In this document: positions 1,822 through 63,968 of the stretch, one piece after another
Layout: every line of letters starts with the position of its first letter
How positions within the stretch are numbered: position 1 is the stretch's first letter
Assembly (NCBI GenBank): GCA_964035545.1
Contig: OZ037771.1
Coordinates: 496,001 to 560,000, forward strand
DNA from: Bugula neritina
Lineage: Eukaryota > Bryozoa > Gymnolaemata > Cheilostomatida > Bugulidae
Length of the DNA stretch: 64,000 nt
Direction of reading: 5' to 3'
Position numbers and translations under genes: made by a program
Notes under the pieces: model-generated
Database searches by the model: none
Told to the model about the DNA's origin: nothing
The model's input: only the letters and a program-made list of their open reading frames with translations

Positions 1822-2452
1822 GTTATATATTCTACTACTTCACATCAATGCATAGACAAATACTGTTTTGCTAAGTTTAGTTTTAGGTTCAGTTTCAATT
1901 CATGTAGGGTAATTTGTTTTGTAATTAGCAGCGAATATTTTAAACTTAAAATTTTATTCAACTTTATTTGAAGATTTTGAACATCATAGAATTTAATACT
2001 GAACAGTGTTTGGGATGAGTACTTTTATACTGCCATGTGGACACAATTCCTACACTATTAACTTGTTGCTATTGAATTCTGAGGGTTATTAGTCAGGGTA
2101 GCAGAAAGCTTATCTGATTTCACAGTGTCTGTGGTCCTATTCTATAATTTGTCTACTAATTGCCAGCTGAGAGAACTTAGTTGTATTTGGAATGTAATAA
2201 ATAAATGTCTAAGAGAGAAGTATTGTATACAACGCATTCAGTGATTGGCTGTCGTTGTAGTCAGCACAGAGTCTGTTATCCAATTAGGGATGAGCTTCAG
2301 ACCGTTCTAGCGTGTCCACCTCTTTCACTACATCAACACAAGGAGCAAGTTATAACTATACTCAAGTAACCCATTAGAATAATCAAGGATGCAGCTAATA
2401 TTATATATTGTGATATATTGTAACACTTCCCCTGTTCAACTCATCAACCCAG
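1822..2452. other. Intergenic gap between convergent genes
   Basis: AT-rich sequence between the DUF229 stop and the stop of the minus-strand gene. Apart from the AATAAA at 2197 I see no coding exon, RNA gene or repeat array. Confidence 0.6.
2197..2202 (+). terminator. Candidate polyadenylation signal of the DUF229 gene
   Basis: AATAAA lies about 375 bases after the DUF229 stop codon, just before the convergent gene ending at 2453. No other canonical signal was noticed between them. Confidence 0.45.
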
Positions 2453-5400
2453 TTACCTGGAGACTGAGGAATCCATGGAGTAGTTGGATGGAACGTATGT
2501 CTTCTCAAAAGTTCCTCCAAAGGAAATGGCATTTTTCTTCTTCCCCGTCTCTTTCGCGCCATTACCTGTCTGTTTCTCTTCTATATTGGGGACTTCCTTG
2601 GGCATTGTGAAGTTAGCACCTTCTTCACCTTGTTTCTCTGTTGGTACTGGATTAACTGCTGCAGATTTCACTTTATCTAAATATACATAGTAGTCTGTAG
2701 ATCAACACTGAATGGCTGTTAAAACATTTCAAACTTACACTACAGGATTTAAAGTCGCTGTTAAGTAATATTATTGACTAAAATTTAATAATTAAAAACA
2801 TATTTTTGTGTATTTTGAAATTTATTAGCTGATCGAGTTTTTGTTTTAAAATGAATTATATCTACAATATTACTATTAATCTGTATGTCACTATATTACT
2901 ACTGTATGTCACTATATTACTACTGTATGTCACTATATTACTACTGTATGTCACTATATTACTACTGTATGACACTATATTACTACTGTATGTCAATATA
3001 TTACTACTGTATGTCACTATATTACTACTGTATGACAATATATTACTACTGTATGTCACTATATTACTACTGTATGTCACTATATTACTACTGTATGTCA
3101 ATATATTACTACTGTATGTCAATATATTACTACTGTATGACAATATATTACTACTGTATGACAATATATTACTACTGTATGTCACTATATTACTACTGTA
3201 TGTCAATATATTACTACTGTATGACAATATATTACTACTGTATGACAATATATTACTACTGTATGTCACTATATTACTACTGTATGTCACTATATTACTA
3301 CTGTATGACAATATATTACTACTGTATGTCACTATATTACTACTGTATGACAATATATTACTACTGTATGTCACTATATTACTACTGTATGTCACTATAT
3401 TACTACTGTATGTCACTATATTACTACTGTATGACAATATATTACTACTGTATGACACTATATTACTACTGTATGACAATATATTACTACTGTATGTCAC
3501 TATATTACTACTGTATGTCACTATATTACTACTGTATGTCACTATATTACTACTGTATGACAATATATTACTACTGTATGACATTATATTACTACTGTAT
3601 GTCACTATATTACTACTGTATGTCACTATATTACTACTGTATTTCATTATATTACTACTGTATGACATTATATTACTACTGTATGTATATGTGATGTACC
3701 GATATTTTCTGTACCTCCCTCATTTCCAACTGAAGTGGCTGCAGCATCGCTGTGAGCTTTAACCAGCGAGTCCTTGGCAGTGGAGCCGAGTGCAGACCCT
3801 TGGGATGCTGCCTGGGCTGGCTTTGGCTTAGCACCAGTGGCGGACGCTTTTGGACTCATCGCTGGTTTGGGAGCAGCAATAGAAGCTTTTGATTGGATAA
3901 CCTTTGACATTGCGTTGGACTTGATCTGAGATTGACTCTTTGCCTTTGATGTGTTTCTTTGACTAGGTGAGTTCACTTTGCTTGCTTTGTTCATGATTTG
4001 GGATGGCTGAGGTTCACCAGCTCTGGACTTTTTACTCCCTAATCTTGACGGCTGAGGTTTCAACTCCTCATCTGAACTGTCTGATGAATTGCTCCAATTT
4101 CCAACTTTTTGGAAGAGCTTTGATTTGCTTTTAAATTTTGATGGCTGCCTGCATACAAATAAGGACAATAATTGGTGAGTATGAAGTTATCTACACATTT
4201 ATTCTCTAAACAGTTTTAATGACACTGCATTTTGTGTAAGATAAATGTAAACTTTTGACATTAAATGCTTGTTGTAAAGTTAAGGGGTTCAATATTCTCC
4301 CGGTCTACTTAGAATGATAGAGCAGTGTAAAGTAATATCAAAGGTTACCATACATTTGCCTGTCCTTCTATTATACAATTATACAGTGTTTGCTATGCTA
4401 GTTGGAATAGGCATAAAGAGAGTTCAAGAAGTTACAACTGAAAGAGCGTATGCTCTAATTATGTCATGCATCTATTGTCAGCAATATGTCATTTACAATC
4501 TGAACAATTTTACTGAAAAGCAAACTTGCCTTTTTTTGAGTGCTGACTTAAAGTTTGAAGCTTGAGCTTTAACTGGAGCTGACTTAGATTTCTTAAGTGT
4601 TGTGCTCAAAGGAGCAGCTTTGTCATCGTCTGATTTTTTATCTTCAAAGTCAGTATCATCATGCTGGTCATATTTATAGGCTAAAATAAAATACCCACTT
4701 TGGTTGACACAGTTTACACTTACTTGACATAGTTTACACTTGCTTGATGCAGTTCACACCTACTCACTTGATTTAGCTGTAGATTTTTTGGGTTGCAGAG
4801 TGGATCTGGTTTGGTGAATCTCCGAAACTGAGGAATGCGTGTTGCCGTGAGAGCTGGATTTTCGGCGAGACCTCCTGTCTTCGTGGCGCGAGTCTGTTTG
4901 GTGAAGACGTCTAGATTCTGTTTGGTGGAGACGTCTAGATTCTGTTTGGTGGAGACGTCTAGATTCTGTTTGGTGGAGACGTCTAGATTCTGTTTGGTGA
5001 GTTGACTCTTTGCTGCCAGTGTCTCTGTCTATGTGAGGGTGGCCGTAGCTTCTGCTGTGAGGGGTGGATTGAAAAATGTGGTTGTAGGGGTAGTTGTCTG
5101 GGGGCAGGAGTGGGTCAAGGTGGTTCATTGAACAAGGAGTCTCTCCTAAGAATATAACACCAACATTTGTTATATAAACATGGTGGTGCTGAAGTTGATG
5201 TAAAGTAATATTAGCAGAGCAATAGCCAATGAGTGCTGCAGTACCATTTCATATACACTGTCACTTTATCAGTCTGCACACACACACTAGTTGTTTCTGT
5301 AGGTATATTGTATGGTAATAAAACGTCACTGCAGAAATTTTACTTCGTGATTTCATTCACCTTTTTAGACATAACAAATCAACTGAGCGGACACAAACAG

Positions 5401-33820: not shown

Positions 33821-36800
33821 ATGGCTAGAATTATATTCTTCATACTATTTTGCCTAGCATTCAGTTTATCATATGGACAAAGCAACTCTAATAATGGCCA
33901 TAACAACAGGAATTGTGGCAAGTGTGGACAAGCAAATGGAGGGTGAGATAGTTATGTTGTTTTACTTACTGACATTTAATATAGTCAACTGTCTAGTAGG
34001 CTTGTATATTGTAAAATACCAGTAGGCTATGATAGAATGTATATTATATAATATTCTGATATTATATAATATCCTAATATTATTTAATATTAGAATATTA
34101 TATAATATTAGAATATTACTTCTGTCACATAAGCAGCCTATAACTCACAGACAACTATCTCTGAATCTTTGCTAATCAACGTAAAACTTAATTTAAGAAC
34201 TTCCATTAACCCTTTCCTTTGATTGTTTATATTCACATCAAGCCTTCTGTTAATGGTGATATTAAGTAGTATGCTATATGTGTGTGTGATGCTGCATATT
34301 AACTATAATGTACAATATATTATAATATTATAAAACGGTGCTAGTGCATAAAGACATATATAACAACGCATATTGCAATGCAACAAAAATATAACATAAT
34401 ATAACATAATAAAGTATTACATTACAACTATAGTAAGCTATGTAATACAAAGTCATAAAAATTAAAATGTAATTGCTATACAATTTAATGTAATATAATA
34501 CAACTTATATAACATAATATAATATAATTATATAATTTGGTGTATTTGCTAGGAATGCCATGAGCCCTGGAAGTCTACAAGTTTTTAATCAGCTGAAAAG
34601 ACATCTGCCATTTCTAAACCGTTTGGTACGTGTATTCAGTACATAGTATCTATGTCTATGTGTATTCAGTATATAGTATCTATGTCTATGTGTATTCAGT
34701 GTATAGTATCTATGTCTATGTATATTCAGTATATAGTATCTATGTCTATGTGTATTCAGTGTATAGTATCTATGTCTATGTGTATTCATGCAGTATATAG
34801 TATCTTTGTCTATGTATATTCAGTATATATGACAGACAGACATGCATATAATATACATACTAGTAGAACTGGTCATCTGTTCTTGTATGATGTTTCATAC
34901 TTGTTTATTAAGAAAATAAAATCTAATCTCAATTTTCTATTTTTATATCGCAATTTATTTAACAATTTATTCATCTCCTTACACACAACCTAGCACACTG
35001 GCTATCACAATAAAGCTCAGCTGTGTGAGATACTTGTTATGTTGTTATTAGACTTGTTCTCTCTGTATTGTAGAATGGGAACCAACAGAATGTAAGTACC
35101 CCTGCCTGTATTCTGTTTGGTTTAGTCTAGTGAGTAACAACTCTAAACTGATGTCTTTTACCAATTTTATAGAAATTGCAAACATGTGTTTGCATGTAAA
35201 CATATATGGTTTACACCAGTATTAGTATACATTCAAGTTTCAGTGGTTTAAAAGAGATTTCTGAAAGTAGTAAGGCTGTATGAGTAGACTTGGCAGGAGC
35301 TGTTAGAGATACTTGTAAAGTTATTGACTATAAGTCACTCTGCCGTTAGAGATACTTGTGATCATAAGTGTGGGAAACACTATTACCATGGAGCTTTATA
35401 CCAAATGTCATGCAATACAAGTTAAATATAGAAACAAAGTGCCGGGGATACACTCTGATGCAGAGCTGTCAACTTGTCTGGAGATGCTACATCTGTGGGC
35501 CGGAGAATATATCTTATGAACTTCCTTAAATTGGAATAGTTGCATGAGTCAAGTCAGCCAACTTAGTGATCATACCACATGTTTATTCAAACAGACAGGG
35601 AAACAGGGCCATGTGCTTCATCAAACACCAAACAGACAACAGTGTTTTTCAACTCTGATTAGTCCCAACATATTCAGAGCATAAAAAATAAGCAAACATA
35701 ATATTATGCAATAGTTCAGTAAATAAATTCTAATTATTTCCAGTCCATTGCTCTCTTGCATATGCAAGCTATGAATCAAGCTATATTTTTACTTGCTATA
35801 AAACACTTTCAATTGGCACTCCGTTGATTTCACCATTTCCGCTGAATTATAATATTCTTTTCAATATTTATCTTTGTGTGAATATAATAAATAATTCATA
35901 CATTGTACTAGCAGACTAGTTTCCTTGAAGGAGTGTATAATTTACTTGATTATGTAGGGTAACGACCAGATTATAGTAATAATATGGTATAGAGCCAGAT
36001 AAACACACCTTGACAAATGTAGTAATTTGTCTCTATGATATTCATCTTATAATCTATCCAAATACAACATCAGTATTTTAAAGCAAATTGTAGGTTGATT
36101 AACGTTTCATCTACATATAACATTTGCTGTGAGAGTTGTCACATGTTATATCTTGTAGGCGTTGGCTTGTCCAGTGTCTCAGGTCTTCTTTCCAACTACC
36201 AGATCTGAGCCGACATGCAATTCTCAAGCTGATTGCAGACGCTCTGGTGAATTATGTTGTCCTTGGGGCAATGACAATTATTGTCTAAGAGGAATCAACA
36301 CAACTCCAAAACCAGGTTCTGATCTTTATTTTAGACCACACGTACAGTAACATTTTAACATTGTGCAATTAGCATTGAGAAGTTTTCTTCAACTGTTCAT
36401 ATATAAGATTTTTGTCATGTTTCTTTAATCTTGTTAGGTGTTTGTCCGAACAACCCAAGAGTTAGCAGAAATTTGTGTAAACAAGACTTTGGGGGATGTC
36501 GTTTTGACTCAGAGTGTTCTTCGACTGACAAGTGTTGTGAGACTGTGGGTTGTGGCTACAGTGAGTGTACTCCTTTGAGATCTGTAAGACCGGCTACAGC
36601 TAGGCCACCACCAGTTGGACCTCCTACAGGTGGATTAGTTAGAGTAGCACCACCTACAAGTAGGCCACAGACTGTAAGACCACCCCCAATTGGACCTCCT
36701 ACAGGTGGACCTGTTATTTGCACACGCATTGCTTGTCCACCTGCTCCCGGCCCATCTTGTCGCCATATTGGACAAGTTTTTCCTAATGGACCTCTGTGTG

Positions 36801-39800
36801 GTGCCTGTCCTGTCTGTAATGATGTCATACATCCACCAACCACTAGACCAACTCCGGTAGCTTGCACTCGAATTGGCTGCCCACCACGTCCAAGTCCTTC
36901 TTGTCGCCATATTGGACAAGTTTTCCCTAATGGACCTCAGTGTGGTGCCTGCCCTGTCTGTAATGATGTCATACATCCACCAACCACCACTCGACGTCCT
37001 CCAGTAGCTTGCACTCGGATTGGCTGTCCACCACGTCCAAGTCCTTCTTGTCGCCATATTGGACAGGTTTTTCCTAATGGACCTCAGTGTGGTGCCTGCC
37101 CTGTCTGTAATGATGTCATACATCCACCAACCACCACTCGACGTCCTCCAGTAGCTTGCACTCGAATTGGCTGTCCACCACGTCCAAGTCCTTCTTGTCA
37201 AAATGTTGGACAAGTTTTTCCTAACGGACCTCAGTGTGGTGCCTGCCCTGTTTGTAATGATGCGCAATCCACATCTATTGTGCCACAGGTGAATATTTCT
37301 CAATAGCTATTGATGCTCATTTTACAATTCACACCAACGATGGAAGGTTTGCTTCTGTCCTAACCGCCTTGCCCCGCCCCTCCACTCTCTCGTTTGAGTA
37401 GCTAATAACAAAAATATATCTTATTAAAAGAGTTGCAATTATATACTAAATCAGATACAATCTAGAAGAGGAAAGTTGTTTGTGAATATAAGTAATTGTA
37501 GAGCTTCATACAGTATGTATTCATATAATAGTGTCAGTTACCAGGGAAATCATAAAAGGAAAAGAAAGATAATATGTTGTCAGCTTAATTAAGAATATTT
37601 TATAATTAAAAAAGAACTGGCACTTGAGATTATTTAGTTTTTAAATAACTTTTTTATTTTATTGGAACTAATTAACCATATTGATTGTCAAATAAGTTAT
37701 GAGCCAAAGACAATGACAGTAAATTGTTTATGTAGACTCTAGCCTGTCCGGTTTCTCCATTCTTCTTCCCGGCTACCAGATCTGAACCGACATGTAATTC
37801 TCAAGCTGATTGCAGAGGTGCAGGTGAATTATGCTGCTTCTGGGGTGTTAACAAGCATTGCCTGCGAGGAATTGATACAACCCTAAAGCCAGGTATACCG
37901 TTTATAAACTGCCAATAAGTGAGTGTAACATTACCAAGGTTACATCGCAATAATTACATCAATACAAATATTGCTATGAAGTAACAATTTCTAATATAAT
38001 ATAGGAGTGATGATTGGCACATCAACTTTACAATACAACGTATTATTTAAGCTGAAAACTTTTTAACTATATTTGACTTGCATAGAACAGATATAATATA
38101 ATTAAATTAAATTATATTATATTATTGATATATTCTGAAATTTGTTTCAATTTATATATAAAATTTAAATTCCAAAACTTTAAGACTTTATTTCCCATAC
38201 TTAATTTTAGGAGTATGTCCGAACAACCCAACAGTTAGCAGAAATTTGTGTAAACAAGACTTTGGGGGATGTCGTTTTGACTCAGAGTGTTCTTCGACTG
38301 ACAAGTGTTGCGAGACTGTGGGTTGTGGCTACAGTGAGTGTACTCCTTTGAGATCTGTAAGACCAGCTACAGCTAGGCCACCACCAGTTGGACCTCCTAC
38401 AGGTGGATTAGTCAGAGTAGCACCACCTACAAGTAGGCCACAGACTGTAAGACCACCCCCAGTTGGACCTCCTACCACAGGGCCTATTATTTGCACCCTC
38501 ATTGCTTGTCCACCTGCTCCCGGACCATCATGTCGCCATATTGGACAAGTTTTTCCTAATGGACCTCAGTGTGGTGCCTGCCCTGTCTGTAATGATGTCA
38601 TACCTCCACCAACTACTACTCAACGACATCCAGTAGCTTGCACTCGGATTGGCTGTCCACCACGTCCAAGTCCTTCATGTCGACATATTGGACAAGTTTT
38701 TCCTAATGGACCTCTGTGTGGTGCCTGCCCTGTCTGTAATGATGTCATACCTCCACCAATCACCACTCAACGTCCTCCAGTAGCTTGCACTCGGATTGGC
38801 TGTCCACCACGTCCAAGTCCTTCATGTCGACATATTGGACAAGTTTTTCCTAATGGACCTCAGTGTGGTGCCTGCCCTGTCTGTAATGATGTCATACCTC
38901 CACCAATCACTACTCAACGTCCTCCAGTAGCTTGCACTCGGATTGGCTGTCCACCACGTCCAAGTCCTTCATGTCGACATATTGGACAAGTTTTCCCTAA
39001 CGGACCTCTGTGTGGTGCCTGCCCTGTCTGTAATGATGTCATACCTCCACCAATCACCACTCGACGTCCTCCAGTAGCTTGCACTCGGATTGGCTGTCCA
39101 CCACGTCCAAGTCCTTCATGTAGACATATTGGACAAATTTTTCCTAACGGACCTCTGTGTGGTGCCTGCCCTGTCTGTAATGATGTCATACCTCCACCAA
39201 TCACTACTCGACGTCCTCAACTTCGAACAACAAGGGTGAGAATAATGATATTGTTTGTCAACTGAAATACTCATTTCTAGATATTCCATAGCATGGCAGC
39301 TTGCTAATGCCACCCTGTTTTGGTGGTCAGCAAGTTTGTAGTTCTACAAAGACACCAGCAGCTGTGGTGTCGCACATTCTTAGGTTAATTGACAAATTCT
39401 CCATGAAAACATCAGAAGTTATTCATTTTATTTTATTATTTTTTCATTGCACTTATGCAAATAAGTTCATTACAAATAAAATTTGTTATCTTATATTTAA
39501 CTTAATTTGTAAAAATTCAAAAGACTATATAAAGATTGCAAGTTCAGTGCAAAGCAATATTGAAGAATATTTTCAGGTATGCATATAACCTACGTCAGTG
39601 CACGATTGTGCACTTTTCCTAGCCGGGCTTATAACTTTATACCTACTTCCTATGATGATAATTACCAAAATATTTTCTGTACTTATTATATTTCAGCAAC
39701 CAGAATTCTCATTAAAAGGAACAATTAATTTTTATTATAAACCAACAGTAAAACTTCCAAGCCATATATTATGGCACCAACTAGTCTAAAAATATTTTAA

Positions 39801-57355: not shown

Positions 57356-60300
57356 TCATAACCTCGTCATACCAAACCACGACTTGATGAGAGACGTCAG
57401 TTTTCCTTTATTTCTACAACAGGGCAAGCAGCTGCAAGGAACTGTATTCGTATTGATATGAACTCATTATATCATGTCTACACAACTCCTTAGGCATATA
57501 ATAGAAACTACACCATTGCACAGTTGAAAGAAATATAAAATACATTATATTTAAATGGCCCACAGCTTTAAATTCCACCAACTTCTGGACCTCTATTGAT
57601 GTACAAGTAATGCAATACATGTGAAGTGAAGTGTAGCCCTTACCTCTCACCTGCAGAGTCTGAAGTTGCTGTAACGACTGCTCCTTGGCTGAAATATAAA
57701 ACACAGTTTTGAAGGCAATGACTGTAGTAAAAACGCATAACGCTATCACAGAGTAGCGTAGGACTGAAGGCAATGACTGTAATACAGACACGTAGAGCTA
57801 TCATAGAGTAGCACAGGACTGGCGTACATACATGACACTCACCTTGTTGCTTCTCTTTCAGGATCACTTCTATCTGGTTAATTATTGTTGAGGATAAATC
57901 AGCTCTCCCGTCAGCATCAGCTGAGAAACAGGACAAAGAGTATAACTAACATGTGACTAACAGATGATACAAAGAGTATAACTAACACGTGACTAACAGA
58001 TGATACAAAGAGTATAACTAACATGTGACTAACAGATGATACAAAGAGTATAACTAACACGTGACTAACAGATGATACAAAGAGTATAACTAACATGTGA
58101 CTAACAGATGATACAAAGAGTATAACTAACACGTGACTAACAGATGATACAAAGAGTATAACTAACATGTGACTAACAGATGATACAAAGAGTATAACTA
58201 ACATGTGACTAACAGATGATACAAAGAGTATAACTAACATGTGACTAACAGATGATACAAAGAGTATAACTAACACGTGACTAACATGTGACTGTCATGA
58301 CAGTTCCACAACAACACGAATGTCCTATTCAGTGGCCTAGTATTGCAGATTATTAAATGCAGTGAAATGAACAGGGAATCGTTGAAGTGAAAACTGACTG
58401 CCTACTTGTAAAGAAGACGAGTCTAAACATATAGAGGGAGCGGGAAAGCGGGCTATGGGAGAGAACTTGGTCTAGAAGGTCTTTGAAGTTCCTGACTTGG
58501 TGCATCATCTCGTCCTTTGACAGTCCAGCCAATCCCTCGCGACTCATTTCATACATGGATACCACAGGAGTTGCGTACTCTAACAATGCGTAATACTCCT
58601 GGGAAAACCCTACATGTGTGTACTATATGCTTCAAGCACATTTGAAAACATTGAAATAGTTTCACAAAATAAAATATGATCTAAAAACAAAAAATAGTAA
58701 ATTATTTAATTAATAAAGATTAGAATTCTTGTTGACTTTATTTAAATCACATACAATACTCAAACTAAAAACCAACATTTTATATTAAATTATGCTAACT
58801 TTGAAAAAATGAATAATTTTAGAGGTTCAACTTTTAGGAACTGCATTTTCATATTACATATATGAGAGAAAACCAGTTTGAAAACCCAACACGAATATGC
58901 AGCAAATAAACAAGTGTGTTCATAAGTTACATTCTTATAACAAACCTTGCCTTCGTTGTCCTTCACGCTGTAGATGTAGTTGTTGTAGTTGCGAGCAATG
59001 ACACCAGCACGGTTGACCTTAGCGGCAGCGAGGGGCGCCAGTTTCTGGATGCGAGGGTCACAGTTGGAGATGTCGCTATGACAGTTCCCGCTGGCAGGCA
59101 CGAGAATGAACAGGGTGGGCAGGAACGGCTTACCCTCCTGGTTGTAGTACTCGGAGCTCTCACATCTGTCTTCAAGGGCTGGAAATAATGATGAAGATGA
59201 TTGTTATAGTAGTAGGGTAATGTCATGCTGCATGCTTCAATCTCTATGTAGTATATATGTTTGAGCAACTTTAACAACACACAGTTAATGAATATAATAG
59301 ATGAGTTATTGTCAAGGGAGATAATAGTCTTGAGGTGACAGGTCTGTTTGGGAAGAGGATGGACACAGTAACACAACTCCACTCAGTTCTGAAATGAAGA
59401 GTGAAGCAGTACCTGATTGCTACAAATAAACACATCCTGTAACAGTTAGACAGGTGTGATTCACCAGGAATTTAGACAGTTGTCAGGTTTCTCCTGTCCA
59501 AATCTTTGTTTGACAACCAGTTACTGCTAGCAGATTTACCACAATTGGCAGTGAAACAAGCATGACTCATTTGCTTACGTCTAAATAATAGAAATTCTCT
59601 GTGCAACTAGACACATTGATAGCCTATGCAGTGCATTCATGGAAATTATTGATAAAAACAAATTCATGAGAAAGTATTTGGAAATTGAGGCCACTAACAC
59701 ATAACTCTCCAGTTTTACAGTTATAATTTAGTGGGTGAGGCAATGCAATATACATGGTTAGACAGTGGTGTGTGCAGACATGTGCATAGGAAAGCTTAGA
59801 TAAAAGACGGGCAAGTCTAGAGCTCAAAGAGTTCACAGGGAATACTCACAGGGAATACTTACAGGGAATACTTACAGGGAATACTTACAGGGAATACTTA
59901 CAGGAAATACTTACAGGAAATACTTACAGGGAATACTTACAGGGAAATATGAGTTTCAGATAGCCGTAGTAGTAACTCCACACCAAACCCTGAGCCACAT
60001 TGCCACATGGTAACGACACTTTCAGCGGAATATCAGGACCTACAGTCACATGACCAGTAGTGTCACCTGACTAGAGATGTCACATGACCAGTAGTGTCAC
60101 CTGTCTAGAGATGTCACATGACTAGCAGTGTCAGCTGACTAGAGATGTCACATGACTAGCAGTGTCAGCTGGCTAGTAAGAACTCACCTAAGCTGTCTAG
60201 AAAACTTTGAAAATTTCATTAAAACCTAAAGTTTGCGTTTTAATAAGTTGCGCAGACTATCCACTGTTAATGAGTTGGCATGAATCCATCATAACAAAGT

Positions 60301-61637
60301 AAATAATGACATATTTTTGCTAGTAGATTTAATTAGCATAACATTTACCTGCCACAGCCTGACTTATTCTCAGCAGATCAATGTCGGTACCTTTGTACTC
60401 AAGATAGGAGTATGAGTAGACACCCAACCTGGTTGTCTTGGCCTCTTCCTCAGACAAGTCCAAGCAGACTGGCACCAGCAGCTGACGTTTGTGTGTGTTA
60501 TTGTTGTGGATGAATAGGAGAGTCTCGTGGTCAAAGTAGTTGCTAGAAGATGATGATAAAGATGATGGGAGCTCTTAGCCTTACCAGTATGTGGGGTTTT
60601 GGACAATAAGTTGATTAAGAGGTAAGATTCAGGACTGAGCCAGTAACTAATAGGTGAAGTGTAAACCAAGGGATGCATACGAGCAAAACTCAACCAAAGA
60701 AGCCGTTCTTAACTGTTGTTTAGAAAGTTTATTCAAAGAAACTTTAATTTAATTTGTTGAAATTTGTTTGGCTAATTTTCAAAAAGAAAATCTACTGCTC
60801 TGAAGAAGTCACAAGGAAAAACAGTCGAGAGTTGTCTGACCAGCTATAATTGATACCTTTTCAGGTAGCTCTTGCTACCAGCTATAATTGATACCTTTTC
60901 AGGTAGTTCTTGCTAAGGAGGACTACCACTCTTCGTGACTTCTGCACACATCTCTCTATGTTATCAGCTAGAGGTACGCCCAGTTTAAACTCCAGGCATA
61001 TTGCTACTTTGAAGGAGTTTGACTTCAGGTAACTAGCAATCCGTTCAGCTAGTAGTCAGTAGGAGATAAATAGTAACAATCACATCAATGAAATAACACT
61101 ACTAGAAACTGAAACCAGCTGCAAAGTTCAAATATGTTTATACAGCTTTAAGAAATAAGAACAATACATTTTAAAAAACAAACATTCAATTGAACCCTCA
61201 AATTACCTGATGGATTTAAAGATGGTATACTTTTAACAATAAAACATTAAATTTTTTGCAGTAGTGTATTTTGATTAATACATTATTGAAATTTTACCCG
61301 TTTTGCAGTAATTAAAAATTATTTATACTTTATTTTCAGACATCAGCTATAGTTTTATGCAAACAAAACTATTTATAGACAATAATTTATTTTGTGTCAA
61401 CGCAAACATTTCTGAGCTGAGAAAAGACTGAAAAATAAAAATTACATTTATAGCTAGTAATTATACTACATAAGTTCTTGTGCAGTATCAACAAAACATA
61501 TTACAAATGAGCTTCTACTAACACTTAATATACTCTAGCTTACCAACGTCTTTATCTTCATAAGAGAATGCTATAAAACAATGGTACTCTAAGCTCCCAT
61601 CTAAACTGGGTACCTCGCAGTCTCTTTCAGCATCCAT
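57356..61637 (-). CDS. TIR-STING fusion: TIR domain joined to a STING cyclic-dinucleotide-binding domain
   Basis: Exons: 61637-61544, 61048-60895, 60542-60349, 60039-59941, 59178-58946, 58598-58406, 57920-57843, 57688-57644, 57405-57356 (1140 nt, 379 aa). Phases fit. The last junction is ambiguous: other splice choices end the protein within a few residues. TIR (about 17-140): YHCFIAFSYEDKD, BB-loop-like EFKLGVPLADN (51-61), SRRVVVLLSKNYL, and Glu89 in NYFDHETLLF at the usual NADase Glu place. STING domain (about 158-355): NVAQGLVWSYYYGYLKLIFP (human [20 protein letters not shown]), NRAGVIARNYNNYIYSV, LEYATPVVSMYEMSREGLAG and ADADGRADLSSTIINQI. Equivalents of human Y167, R232, R238, Y240, E260 and T263 are Y174, R237, R243, Y245, E265 and T268. 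No transmembrane helices and no signal peptide, so it is probably cytosolic. Expected role: dimeric cyclic-dinucleotide sensor whose TIR may cleave NAD+ or recruit partners. Confidence 0.93.
57925..58288. repeat. Intronic minisatellite, 36-bp unit, about 10 copies
   Basis: Unit contains taacagatgatacaaagagt and ataactaacatgtgac. It lies in the TIR-STING intron directly upstream of exon 57920-57843. Confidence 0.94.
59833..59945 (-). repeat. 13-bp array of consensus 5' splice sites
   Basis: Minus strand: exon 60039-59941 ends ...CCCT and the intron opens gtaagtattccct, repeated with unit 13 bp. Seven perfect gtaagt motifs and one gtgagt follow one another. Each is a strong donor consensus; the first, at 59940-59935, keeps the protein in phase. 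Confidence 0.93.
60053..60178. repeat. Intronic repeat, ~31-bp unit, about 4 copies
   Basis: Unit contains agagatgtcacatgactagc and agtgtcagctg, adjoining the acceptor of TIR-STING exon 60039-59941. Confidence 0.9.
60838..60917 (-). repeat. ~40-bp tandem duplication spanning a splice donor
   Basis: Two copies of ccagctataattgatacctt plus ttcaggtag(c/t)tcttgcta. On the minus strand each holds ctacctgaaaag|gtatcaat, the end of TIR-STING exon 2 and its donor. Using the second donor would read through an in-frame TAG, so the first (60894) is the working one. Confidence 0.9.
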
Positions 61638-63021
61638 AGATCTAAAGTTTCAAAACTTTCATCATCAGAAAACTAATAAGCAACCGCTAATAGTACGTTC
61701 ACTTATGTTTGGCTCATCCTATATCATATAAATATATGTTTGTTATTTCAACTCTTCATATACCATAAAAGGAAAACTATTTTATCACTTGCAAGTTCCA
61801 TGAGTTACAAAATGTTAATGAATGCAACATTCACTTTGGCAATGCTTTGGTTGGCTACTCTAATTTTAAAGACTTGCTAGAAATATTTTTTAAAATTTTA
61901 TTGCTGAAATAGTTAATAAAAATCACATTATATTTATATTATAATAAATAATATATACTATACAGTATGCTAATACTTAATCTTATAGTTATACTATAAA
62001 TTTTATGGTAATAACTATAACTATAAGTTAATTTACTATAAGTATAATAATTATAAGAAGTTTTAGTATAAATATTTTATTTGCAAGAAAATTATTAAAC
62101 TAGGTCTGACTATACAGTATACTTTTGAGTATAATTGATAGCAAAAAATGACTTGCTAGAAAATTTTTTTAAATTTCATTGCTGAAATAGTCAATAAAAA
62201 TTATATTATATTTACATTATAATAAATAACATTTACTATACAGTATACTAATACTTAATCTTATAGTTATACTATAAATTTTATAGTAATAACTATAAGT
62301 TAATTTACTATAACTACTATAACTATAAGTATAAGTATAAGACTAAGTAAAATTTAGTAATACCAATACTCAATAGTAATACTAATACTAATAGTATAAT
62401 AATAATTTCACTATAATAATTATAATTTCAATTTCTAAGAATTTTTAGTATAAATATTTTATTTGCAAGAAAATTATTAAACTAGGTCTGACTACACTTT
62501 TGAGTATAATTGATAGCAAAAATGACTTTTAATCATTATGATTATCATGATAGTATTTAATTTTCTAGATAGCGTAAAACTAAACTAGCAACACTAAATT
62601 AGAAACTTGCAGCAGATTTCTAGTGAGTCCTTGGGTAATAACCTAGATGCATATTTTAACGCGCAGCGAAAAGTTTCCGGGGTCGCCTTAAAAAGCCATC
62701 CAAATACTGATCGGGTTTGCTGATTTCAGCTAAATTCGCGCTAATAAACTAAATGCCAAGGCAAAACCAATTGCTAATAGGAAATCGAAAGACCATTGGG
62801 TATTCACTGTAAACAAAGAAAGAACTTTAACCCACGTGGACTATTTTCGGAGACCAAGCTCTCTATTGCCGCATGCCTGGTTAGCCAGTTGAACCATCAA
62901 GTATAGCTGCAAGTTGATGTAGTTGAGTTTTGGCGGACACACTCATTAATAATCAAAGTGATCGCAGTTAAATCTTTGATTGAACCACAAACTTTTTTCC
63001 AGCTTTAATTTGAATTTAAAA
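61638..63021. other. Divergent intergenic region between TIR-STING and PPAT
   Basis: About 1.4 kb that should carry both promoters. It contains a direct duplication: unit 1 about 61871-62149, unit 2 about 62150-62525, both starting gacttgctagaaa and sharing gaaaattattaaactaggtc. Unit 2 has an inserted stretch rich in taagtataagtata. The last 350 bases are less AT-rich and adjoin the PPAT start. Confidence 0.75.
62672..62735 (-). repeat. Possible 5S-rRNA-derived relic
   Basis: On the minus strand, agctgaaatcagc followed by gatcagtatttggatgg and then ggcgaccccggaaac resembles the 3' half of animal 5S rRNA (agctaagcag, ttagtacttggatggg, gaccgcctgggaa). Matching is partial and the 5' half was not found, so a 5S pseudogene or 5S-headed SINE relic is only a guess. 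Confidence 0.3.
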
Positions 63022-63968
63022 ATGGAGCATTACTGTGGCGTGTTCGGCTGTATCACAGCCGGGCCGTGGCCAAACGAGTCCAACTTAAATGTTGCTCAAC
63101 TCATACGGAGGGCTCTAATTGGTCTCCAACATAGGTAAGCATTGACTTTAGTTAAAGTTTGTAATTTACTTTTAGTTTTAGCATTGACAACGATTTTGAT
63201 GTGCAATTACCAGAGGTTTAATCGAAAATAACTGTATAAATAATAATTGATTAATATCAATATCAATATGACTATGTTAATCATAATGATAATGTATAAC
63301 TATAAGTACGAATTATTGAATACCAAGTCCAATATGATAATAATTATAATATGAATGTAATAATATCAATATTATTATATATTACTAATTATAATATATT
63401 TATAATTTAAATTATAAACGCTGATGTAAGGTAATATCGATGTGCCTATGATAATCATAATGATGGGGATATACGGATAGCATCTTGAAGTGATCTTGAT
63501 ATTCATGTAGACTTGAAGCTTTAAAGCTAAAAAAACATTAGATTATCAAATTTAATCTCTAATACTCGAATACAGTTTTGTGAAAATGCATGTAGCACTA
63601 TTACTATTAGTATTAATAATAATTTATTTTAAACATCCAAGTCTTTTTTAATATTATAATTAAATTTCAGTTTAGCCAGACAGTATTCATATTCATATTG
63701 AAACACCACCTTTGACAGATAGGCCTCTTGACAGAAATATGTATTTAATTTTATTTGTCTAGAAGTAGATGCCACTTAGTTTTAGTAAAGACTTGCAACT
63801 ACTGCAAACTTTTATCTAATTCACTTCTGCTGGGTGGTTTCCTTATCCTAGCCCTAATCAAATGGTTGTAATTCTAGAGGCCAAGAGAGTGCTGGCATTG
63901 TGACTAGCTACGGAGGGGTCAATGCGAAGGACATGTTTTCATGGAAAGGTCACGGACTAGTTAATCAG
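63022..63968 (+). CDS. PPAT: Amidophosphoribosyltransferase, first two exons
   Basis: Exons 63022-63134 and 63878-63968 join in phase 2; the rest lies beyond the window. The protein reads MEHYCGVFGCITAGPWPNE, then LIRRALIGLQHRGQESAGIV, SYGGVNAKDMFSWKGHGLVN. CGVFGC and GLQHRGQESAGI are hallmarks of the class II glutamine amidotransferase half of PPAT, which makes phosphoribosylamine from PRPP and glutamine in the first step of purine synthesis. Cys5 would be the N-terminal nucleophile after removal of a very short MEHY propeptide; vertebrate propeptides are longer (about 11 residues). The start is the ATG directly before this motif. It is transcribed away from the TIR-STING gene. Confidence 0.93.

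What the first reader, a model, noticed from the sequence alone, without database searches (positions are those of the whole stretch)
57356..61637. TIR-STING fusion gene without transmembrane helices
The sequence shows a TIR domain spliced in phase to a STING ligand-binding domain, with about 20 linker residues and no hydrophobic span. Vertebrate STING has four N-terminal helices and no TIR. The known parallels are bacterial TIR-STING anti-phage effectors and oyster TIR-STING. Conservation of the equivalents of human Y167, R232, R238, Y240, E260 and T263 suggests real cyclic-dinucleotide binding. This points to a soluble animal immune sensor whose output may be TIR-driven rather than TBK1/IRF3-driven.
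Basis: partly seen in the sequence, partly recalled or inferred. Interest (0 to 1): 0.92.

Follow-up and report, generated by a model that had tools for sequence, protein, structure and literature searches.

The report
Bryozoan TIR-STING immune sensor gene
This is an intact animal gene for a predicted soluble immune sensor that joins a TIR signalling domain to the cyclic-dinucleotide-binding part of STING; it is the bryozoan version of a fusion already known and solved in oysters, so it is a real but expected member of a known kind.

Summary
A nine-exon minus-strand gene model (61637-57414) encodes 366 aa: an N-terminal TIR domain (Pfam TIR_2, E 2.3e-16) and a complete STING ligand-binding domain (E 8.1e-44), fused in phase, with no hydrophobic span. 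The closest solved structure is the oyster 'Metazoan TIR-STING fusion' 6wt6/6wt7, matched across both domains; the closest protein found is a 359-aa TIR-STING of the bryozoan Watersipora subatra, named STING-like by NCBI. It is a new member of a known kind: TIR-STING is in print for oyster and the annelid Capitella. Added here: it is the only STING gene found in this genome; the genome has a cGAS-like receptor gene and TBK1-type, IRF and Rel matches; the TIR passes the animal-type and not the bacterial TIR-STING-type Pfam model.

The parts
57414..61637 (-). TIR-STING gene, coding span of the model, 9 exons, 366 aa
61544..61637 (-). exon 1: start codon, N-terminal strand of TIR (YHCFIAFS)
   Evidence: start lies at the same place as in Watersipora P0001
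60895..61048 (-). exon 2: TIR domain, middle
60349..60542 (-). exon 3: TIR domain, Glu89 helix (YFDHE) to end of TIR
59941..60039 (-). exon 4: linker and start of STING ligand-binding domain (NVAQGLVWSYYYGYLK), Y174
58946..59178 (-). exon 5: ligand-binding domain with R237, R243, Y245
58406..58598 (-). exon 6: ligand-binding domain with E265, T268 (EYATP)
57843..57920 (-). exon 7: end of ligand-binding domain, C-terminal helix
57651..57688 (-). exon 8: C-terminal coil (alternative donor after 57644)
   Evidence: tail not confirmed by homology
57414..57431 (-). exon 9: last codons and stop; with the alternative donor the stop ends at 57397
   Evidence: uncertain
63022..63138 (+). first exon of the divergent neighbour, amidophosphoribosyltransferase (PPAT), bounding the 5' side

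Best explanation
A Bugula neritina (bryozoan) gene for a soluble, cytosolic TIR-STING. Most likely working: a cGAS-like receptor senses foreign nucleic acid or another ligand and makes a cyclic dinucleotide; the STING domain dimer binds it through the conserved pocket, closes and stacks into oligomers; this crowds the TIR domains, which act as an assembly platform that passes the signal to TIR-type adaptors and/or the TBK1-like kinase, ending at IRF and Rel factors. Shown here: domains, in-phase fusion in the DNA, pocket residues, absence of membrane helices in the model, one STING gene found, a cGAS-like gene and matches to downstream genes in the same genome. Inferred: expression, ligand binding, oligomerisation, the link to that cGAS-like gene, and the output. 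Identity as TIR-STING about 0.97; CDN receptor about 0.85; TIR as scaffold rather than enzyme about 0.6.
For: Pfam both domains over cut-off; alignment across both domains to oyster 6wt6 and to Watersipora, an unnamed 'lgn' protein and Tegillarca; 6 of 6 pocket residues; no hydrophobic span; cGAS-like gene with a GS..DFD motif and a further aspartate, best PDB match cGAS-like receptor 1, E 2e-14, Mab-21_C E 2.4e-16; TBK1_CCD1, IRF and Rel matches; TIR closest to Toll-like receptor TIRs in PDB and over the cut-off of PF01582.
Against: No transcript or protein was seen. The TIR alone matches PDB chains weakly (best E 5.7e-8), and among the better hits is a 'TIR domain protein' 7uxr (E 6e-6), with the NAD+ hydrolase AbTIR at E 0.019. 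The glutamate used by NADase TIRs is kept (E89), so an enzyme is not excluded. No TIR adaptor such as MyD88 was looked for with its own model, and none was shown. In oyster, the authors concluded that STING and TBK1 were not downstream of cGAS, and reported that the STING ligand-binding domain bound dsRNA and dsDNA itself (PMC8218723, passages); that weighs against the cGAS-like-to-STING step. In the cGAS-like gene, most of the score comes from the C-terminal half: the stretch with the GS motif has i-Evalues of only 0.036 and 0.026, that with the aspartate scores as chance, PF03281 stays below its cut-off (19.5 against 24.1), and I joined its exons by eye. Both TBK1_CCD1 matches read through one stop codon, which may be intron sequence. 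Structure prediction of the Watersipora orthologue was too weak to use (mean pLDDT 52.4).
Confidence: 0.77

Rival explanations
1. The TIR is a ligand-gated NADase: cyclic-dinucleotide binding drives filament formation and NAD+ loss, killing or arresting the infected cell as in bacterial TIR-STING.
For: Glu89 sits at the position of the Glu of SARM1's WxxxE motif (that this is the catalytic Glu of SARM1 is recalled); bacterial SfSTING works this way (PMC9402430, passages); 7uxr 'TIR domain protein' (E 6e-6) and AbTIR (E 0.019) are among the PDB hits of the TIR.
Against: All 9 rows of the alignment keep this Glu, two Toll-like receptor rows included, and Toll-like receptors are not regarded as NADases (recalled), so it is not diagnostic; the tryptophan is Tyr here; the TIR passes PF01582 but not PF10137, the model of the clade that holds SfSTING.
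Confidence: 0.17
2. Output is through TBK1/IRF much as in vertebrates, with the TIR only aiding multimerisation.
For: TBK1-type, IRF and Rel matches are present. In oyster, knock-down of the TIR-STING lowered IRF8 nuclear entry, and the authors cite an interaction of TBK1 with it (PMC8218723, passages).
Against: No PLPLR motif in the predicted protein; its one LxIS string (LRIS, residues 140-143) lies at the end of the TIR, not in a tail. In the passages seen, the oyster knock-down read-outs were expression and localisation.
Confidence: 0.3
3. Gene-model artefact: two neighbouring genes, or missing 5' exons that add membrane helices.
For: No RNA evidence; four minus-strand stop-to-stop stretches with hydrophobic runs exist upstream, in DNA of 26% GC.
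Against: Watersipora's annotated protein is one chain with the same start and spacing; PPAT starts 1.38 kb upstream in the other direction; the Watersipora protein has no such N-terminal hydrophobic stretch, so the upstream runs are probably AT-rich chance. They were not searched for homologues.
Confidence: 0.03

Closest known systems
Oyster (Crassostrea gigas) TIR-STING, PDB 6wt6/6wt7
   Same: TIR then STING LBD, aligned over residues 9-344 of this protein
   Different: 28% identity; oyster has Gly where this protein and human STING have Thr (T268; human T263), so this pocket is closer to human at that site
Watersipora subatra stimulator of interferon genes protein-like (P0001)
   Same: similar length, same domains, start and spacing; 44% identity, 155 of 356 aligned residues
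   Different: another species; differs at some positions of the lid, such as Lys for A242 (human D237)
Bacterial TIR-STING (SfSTING, CBASS)
   Same: same two domain types in the same order (domain order of SfSTING recalled); Glu at the catalytic position
   Different: animal-type TIR by Pfam, intron-containing gene on a chromosome-scale animal contig, no Mab-21 match beside it; animal TIR-STING is published as convergent (PMC10732462, passages)
TM-STING (vertebrates, insects)
   Same: same ligand-binding domain family and pocket residues
   Different: no N-terminal membrane helices here, and no PLPLR motif of the vertebrate tail

Membership tests
Metazoan TIR-STING | N-terminal TIR domain | tested here: met
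   PF13676 60.9 bits, PF01582 40.1 bits, residues 18-118
Metazoan TIR-STING | STING ligand-binding domain C-terminal to it in one chain | tested here: met
   PF15009 149.6 bits, residues 161-340; splice phases; Watersipora protein. No RNA seen
Metazoan TIR-STING | no transmembrane helices | tested here: met
   19-residue hydropathy at most 1.06 in the model; upstream exons not formally excluded
Metazoan TIR-STING | cyclic-dinucleotide pocket residues | tested here: met
   6 of 6 named residues identical to human
Metazoan TIR-STING | binds cyclic dinucleotides | not testable with these tools
   needs protein
Metazoan TIR-STING | one clade with mollusc TIR-STINGs by LBD tree | tested here: inconclusive
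   one side of a branch in the best tree, support 62/60 only, 9 rows, two long branches, no outgroup
Bacterial TIR-STING (CBASS) | TIR of CAP12/Pycsar type (PF10137) | tested here: not met
   12.2 bits against cut-off 24.7
Bacterial TIR-STING (CBASS) | beside a CD-NTase gene | tested here: not met
   no Mab-21 match fell in the window; the cGAS-like gene lies on C3. Bacterial-type CD-NTase models were not run
Bacterial TIR-STING (CBASS) | NADase activity | not testable with these tools
   Glu position kept but not diagnostic
TM-STING | four N-terminal TM helices | tested here: not met
TM-STING (vertebrate) | C-terminal tail with PLPLR and pLxIS | tested here: not met
   no PLPLR anywhere; the only LxIS string is at 140-143, not in the tail; motifs recalled

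The most novel reading that the evidence does not exclude
In cheilostome bryozoans the soluble TIR-STING has wholly replaced membrane STING: it is the animal's only STING, descends from a fusion older than the split of bryozoans and molluscs, and links cyclic-dinucleotide sensing to a TIR output in an animal in whose transcriptome a published survey found no Toll-like receptor (PMC8609888, passage).
Probability: 0.4. Interest if true: 0.5.

Novelty: new member of a known kind. Interest (0 to 1): 0.34.

Why it matters
It extends TIR-STING to Bryozoa (this gene and the Watersipora protein) beside the molluscs and the annelid in print, which bears on the published view that eukaryotic TIR-STINGs are rare and a recent convergence (PMC10732462, passage). 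If it is the sole STING, Bugula would be a simple system to ask what the TIR of an animal TIR-STING does: one STING found, one cGAS-like gene with active-site motifs, and candidate TBK1, IRF and Rel genes.

Tried and rejected
Two genes or a pseudogene: rejected by intact phases and by the single-chain Watersipora homologue. Bacterial contamination or transfer of a whole bacterial TIR-STING: rejected; eight introns, TIR and LBD models of animal type, chromosome-scale contig. My first idea that the NADase glutamate was replaced was wrong: I had picked the wrong column; with SARM1 in the alignment the Glu is kept. LBD tree to decide one or several fusion origins: inconclusive. PF03281 search for cGAS-like genes gave 0 matches at E up to 0.001 in this genome, but nothing rang in the controls either; PF20266 then gave 6 matches at E up to 1: two at C3 (the cGAS-like gene), two at C7 (a Mab21-like type in which the motif search found no GS..DxD), and two on C1, one just over the cut-off (E 0.0054, one stop inside) and one below it (E 0.627), which I did not resolve. 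Of the six stretches fetched, the TBK1 one (L028) was not looked at further and L027 was only scanned for the motif. The last homologue search, with joined exons of PPAT, was meant to name the organism and did not (hits of 53-61% identity in many phyla among the 120 listed of 7997); the name came from chromosome lengths. Structure model of the Watersipora orthologue: mean pLDDT 52.4, so no fold search was run. Rfam and tRNA scans of the window: nothing.

Papers: passages only of PMC10732462, PMC8204762, PMC9980059, PMC8218723, PMC9402430, PMC9334734, PMC6723221, PMC10855445, PMC13142454, PMC11480708, PMC8609888, PMC6040629. The 2020 paper on the oyster structure (10.1038/s41586-020-2719-5) and 10.1093/nar/gku569 are not held and were not read. 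I found no bryozoan TIR-STING in print in the listings (10 of 34 listed), a library of open-licence papers only; that is not proof of absence.
Full report
What is there. On the minus strand, exons between 61637 and 57414 join into a 366-residue protein with no inner stop; the eight introns of the model begin GT and end AG. Pfam finds TIR_2 at residues 21-115 (60.9 bits), TIR at 18-118 (40.1) and STING_LBD at 161-340 (149.6), all above their curated cut-offs. The two C-terminal exons are the least certain part: an alternative donor after 57644 gives a 374-residue protein with another short tail ending at 57397.

It is one gene. A PDB search aligns residues 9-344 to the oyster 'Metazoan TIR-STING fusion' (6wt6, 6wt7) at E 7e-33 as the top hit. 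A search of 5.8 billion proteins, limited to candidates that share short exact words, gave 4 proteins at E up to 0.001 among 4254 candidates: Watersipora subatra (44% identity, 92% coverage), an unnamed protein of source 'lgn' on a contig of 1813 bases, Tegillarca granosa, all three with TIR and STING domains, and the bee Xylocopa violacea with STING only. With a five-row alignment as query, 6 proteins came back among the 7996 candidates scored: the same 4 and two other TIR proteins, one named from a Burkholderiales bacterium. The Watersipora protein starts at the same place and has the same spacing throughout.

No membrane part. The most hydrophobic 19-residue stretch averages 1.06, against 2.78 in the Xylocopa STING, and 0.86-1.26 in Watersipora, P0002 and Tegillarca. 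Upstream, a divergent amidophosphoribosyltransferase gene begins at 63022 (family confirmed), leaving 1.38 kb. That stretch (26% GC) holds four minus-strand stop-to-stop reading frames with hydrophobic runs; nothing ties them to the gene, but only RNA can exclude them.

Pocket. The oyster protein keeps 5 of the 6, with Gly for Thr263.

TIR. In PDB the TIR alone is nearest to Toll-like receptors 6, 1 and 15/2 (E 5.7e-8 to 1.1e-6); next comes a 'TIR domain protein' 7uxr (E 6e-6), and further down the NAD+ hydrolase AbTIR (E 0.019) and oyster TIR-STING (E 0.022). It passes PF01582, which a recent atlas ties largely to its clade 1, where MyD88, TIRAP, Toll-like and interleukin receptors fall, and fails PF10137, tied to the clade that holds bacterial TIR-STING; the same atlas says that TIR_2 does not separate types (PMC13142454, passages). 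The glutamate at SARM1's WxxxE position is kept (E89), with Tyr for Trp; all 9 rows of the alignment keep it, two Toll-like receptor rows included, so it does not separate enzyme from scaffold.

The organism. The window is C7:496001-560000 of an assembly of 215,847,546 bases in 295 contigs. Contig lengths seen, C1 35,640,107, C2 33,575,671, C3 32,418,041, C5 17,720,077 and C7 15,813,509, equal those of chromosomes 1, 2, 3, 5 and 7 of Bugula neritina tzBugNeri2.1 (35.64, 33.58, 32.42, 17.72, 15.81 Mb; PMC11480708, passages). That paper gives 216.00 Mb in 320 scaffolds, so the held copy lacks about 0.15 Mb in small pieces; the match of the five lengths still leaves little doubt. The assembly is annotated in Ensembl, so this gene is probably already a predicted gene there; I could not look.

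The pathway. STING_LBD matches in the genome: 3 of 3 at E up to 1 lie in this gene; a search with this domain itself gave 4 of 4 in this gene at E up to 10. So one STING was found, with the caveat that the assembly's BUSCO completeness is 83.4% and an exon-by-exon search can miss divergent copies. One STING is usual: in a published survey most animal genomes (88%) encode only one STING receptor (PMC9980059, passage). A cGAS-like gene at C3 about 2.584-2.588 Mb carries GSAYERVQAGEPKDFDV and FTIDLVNSL, where cGAS has GSYYEHVKISAPNEFDV and EISVDI (alignment); its best PDB match is cGAS-like receptor 1, E 2e-14, most of it from the C-terminal half, the motif stretches scoring weakly on their own. 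TBK1_CCD1 matches twice in one place, each with one stop read through, IRF at two places, Rel at two places. A survey of Toll receptors found none in the B. neritina transcriptome, though TLR-like proteins were present (PMC8609888, passages).

How it works, and what is known. The best-supported reading is a cytosolic cyclic-dinucleotide receptor whose oligomers present animal-type TIR domains. Bacterial SfSTING shows that STING stacking can drive TIR packing (PMC9402430, passages). Whether the animal TIR recruits partners, cleaves NAD+, or only helps TBK1 is open; a 2023 study calls the role of the TIR in animal TIR-STINGs unclear (PMC10732462, passage). In oyster, TIR-STING knock-down cut the IFN-like, TBK1 and IRF transcripts and IRF8 nuclear entry after poly(I:C), and TBK1 binding was cited (PMC8218723, passages); that weighs against a purely TIR-driven output. 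The same authors concluded that oyster STING was not downstream of cGAS and found that its ligand-binding domain bound dsRNA and dsDNA itself; that weighs against the first step of my reading, and I lowered its confidence slightly for it (0.78 to 0.77).

Novelty. TIR-STING in Lophotrochozoa is in print for oyster and Capitella teleta (PMC6723221, passages), with an oyster structure in PDB. This is a bryozoan member. The ligand-binding tree puts the five TIR-STINGs on one side of a branch but with support of only 62/60; window and Watersipora pair at 95/91, and the unnamed P0002 joins them at 91/90. A single old fusion is plausible but not shown.

Noticed in passing
window 60839-60915: A 38-bp tandem duplication (2.0 copies) copies the 3' end of exon 2 together with its splice donor; use of the second donor would bring an in-frame stop.
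   Followed up: partly
window 57933-58286, 59835-59946, 60045-60176: Minisatellites inside introns of the gene (36 bp x 9.8, 13 bp x 8.6, 34 bp x 3.9); the 13-bp unit repeats the exon-4 donor sequence CCTGTAAGTATT, giving several copies of a strong-looking donor.
   Followed up: no
window 61874-62417: A 278-bp unit in 1.9 copies (79% matches) in the AT-rich stretch between this gene and PPAT.
   Followed up: no
window 36407-37303 and 38162-39262: Two similar plus-strand reading frames with a WAP domain over its cut-off and repeated cysteine-rich units, probably secreted protease-inhibitor-like tandem duplicates.
   Followed up: partly
L003 and L004 (G000:C17, contig of 17,395 bases): Two long open TIR reading frames on a short contig (IFISYSSTERPE.., IFISYAHDDD..), bacterial in look; perhaps a symbiont or contaminant contig in the assembly.
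   Followed up: no
L025 (G000:C3:2582500-2592000), about 1856-5153: A cGAS-like receptor gene with active-site motifs, the likely upstream partner of this STING.
   Followed up: partly
L024 (G000:C7:5177500-5187000): A Mab21-like gene, by look of the developmental type, on the same chromosome.
   Followed up: partly
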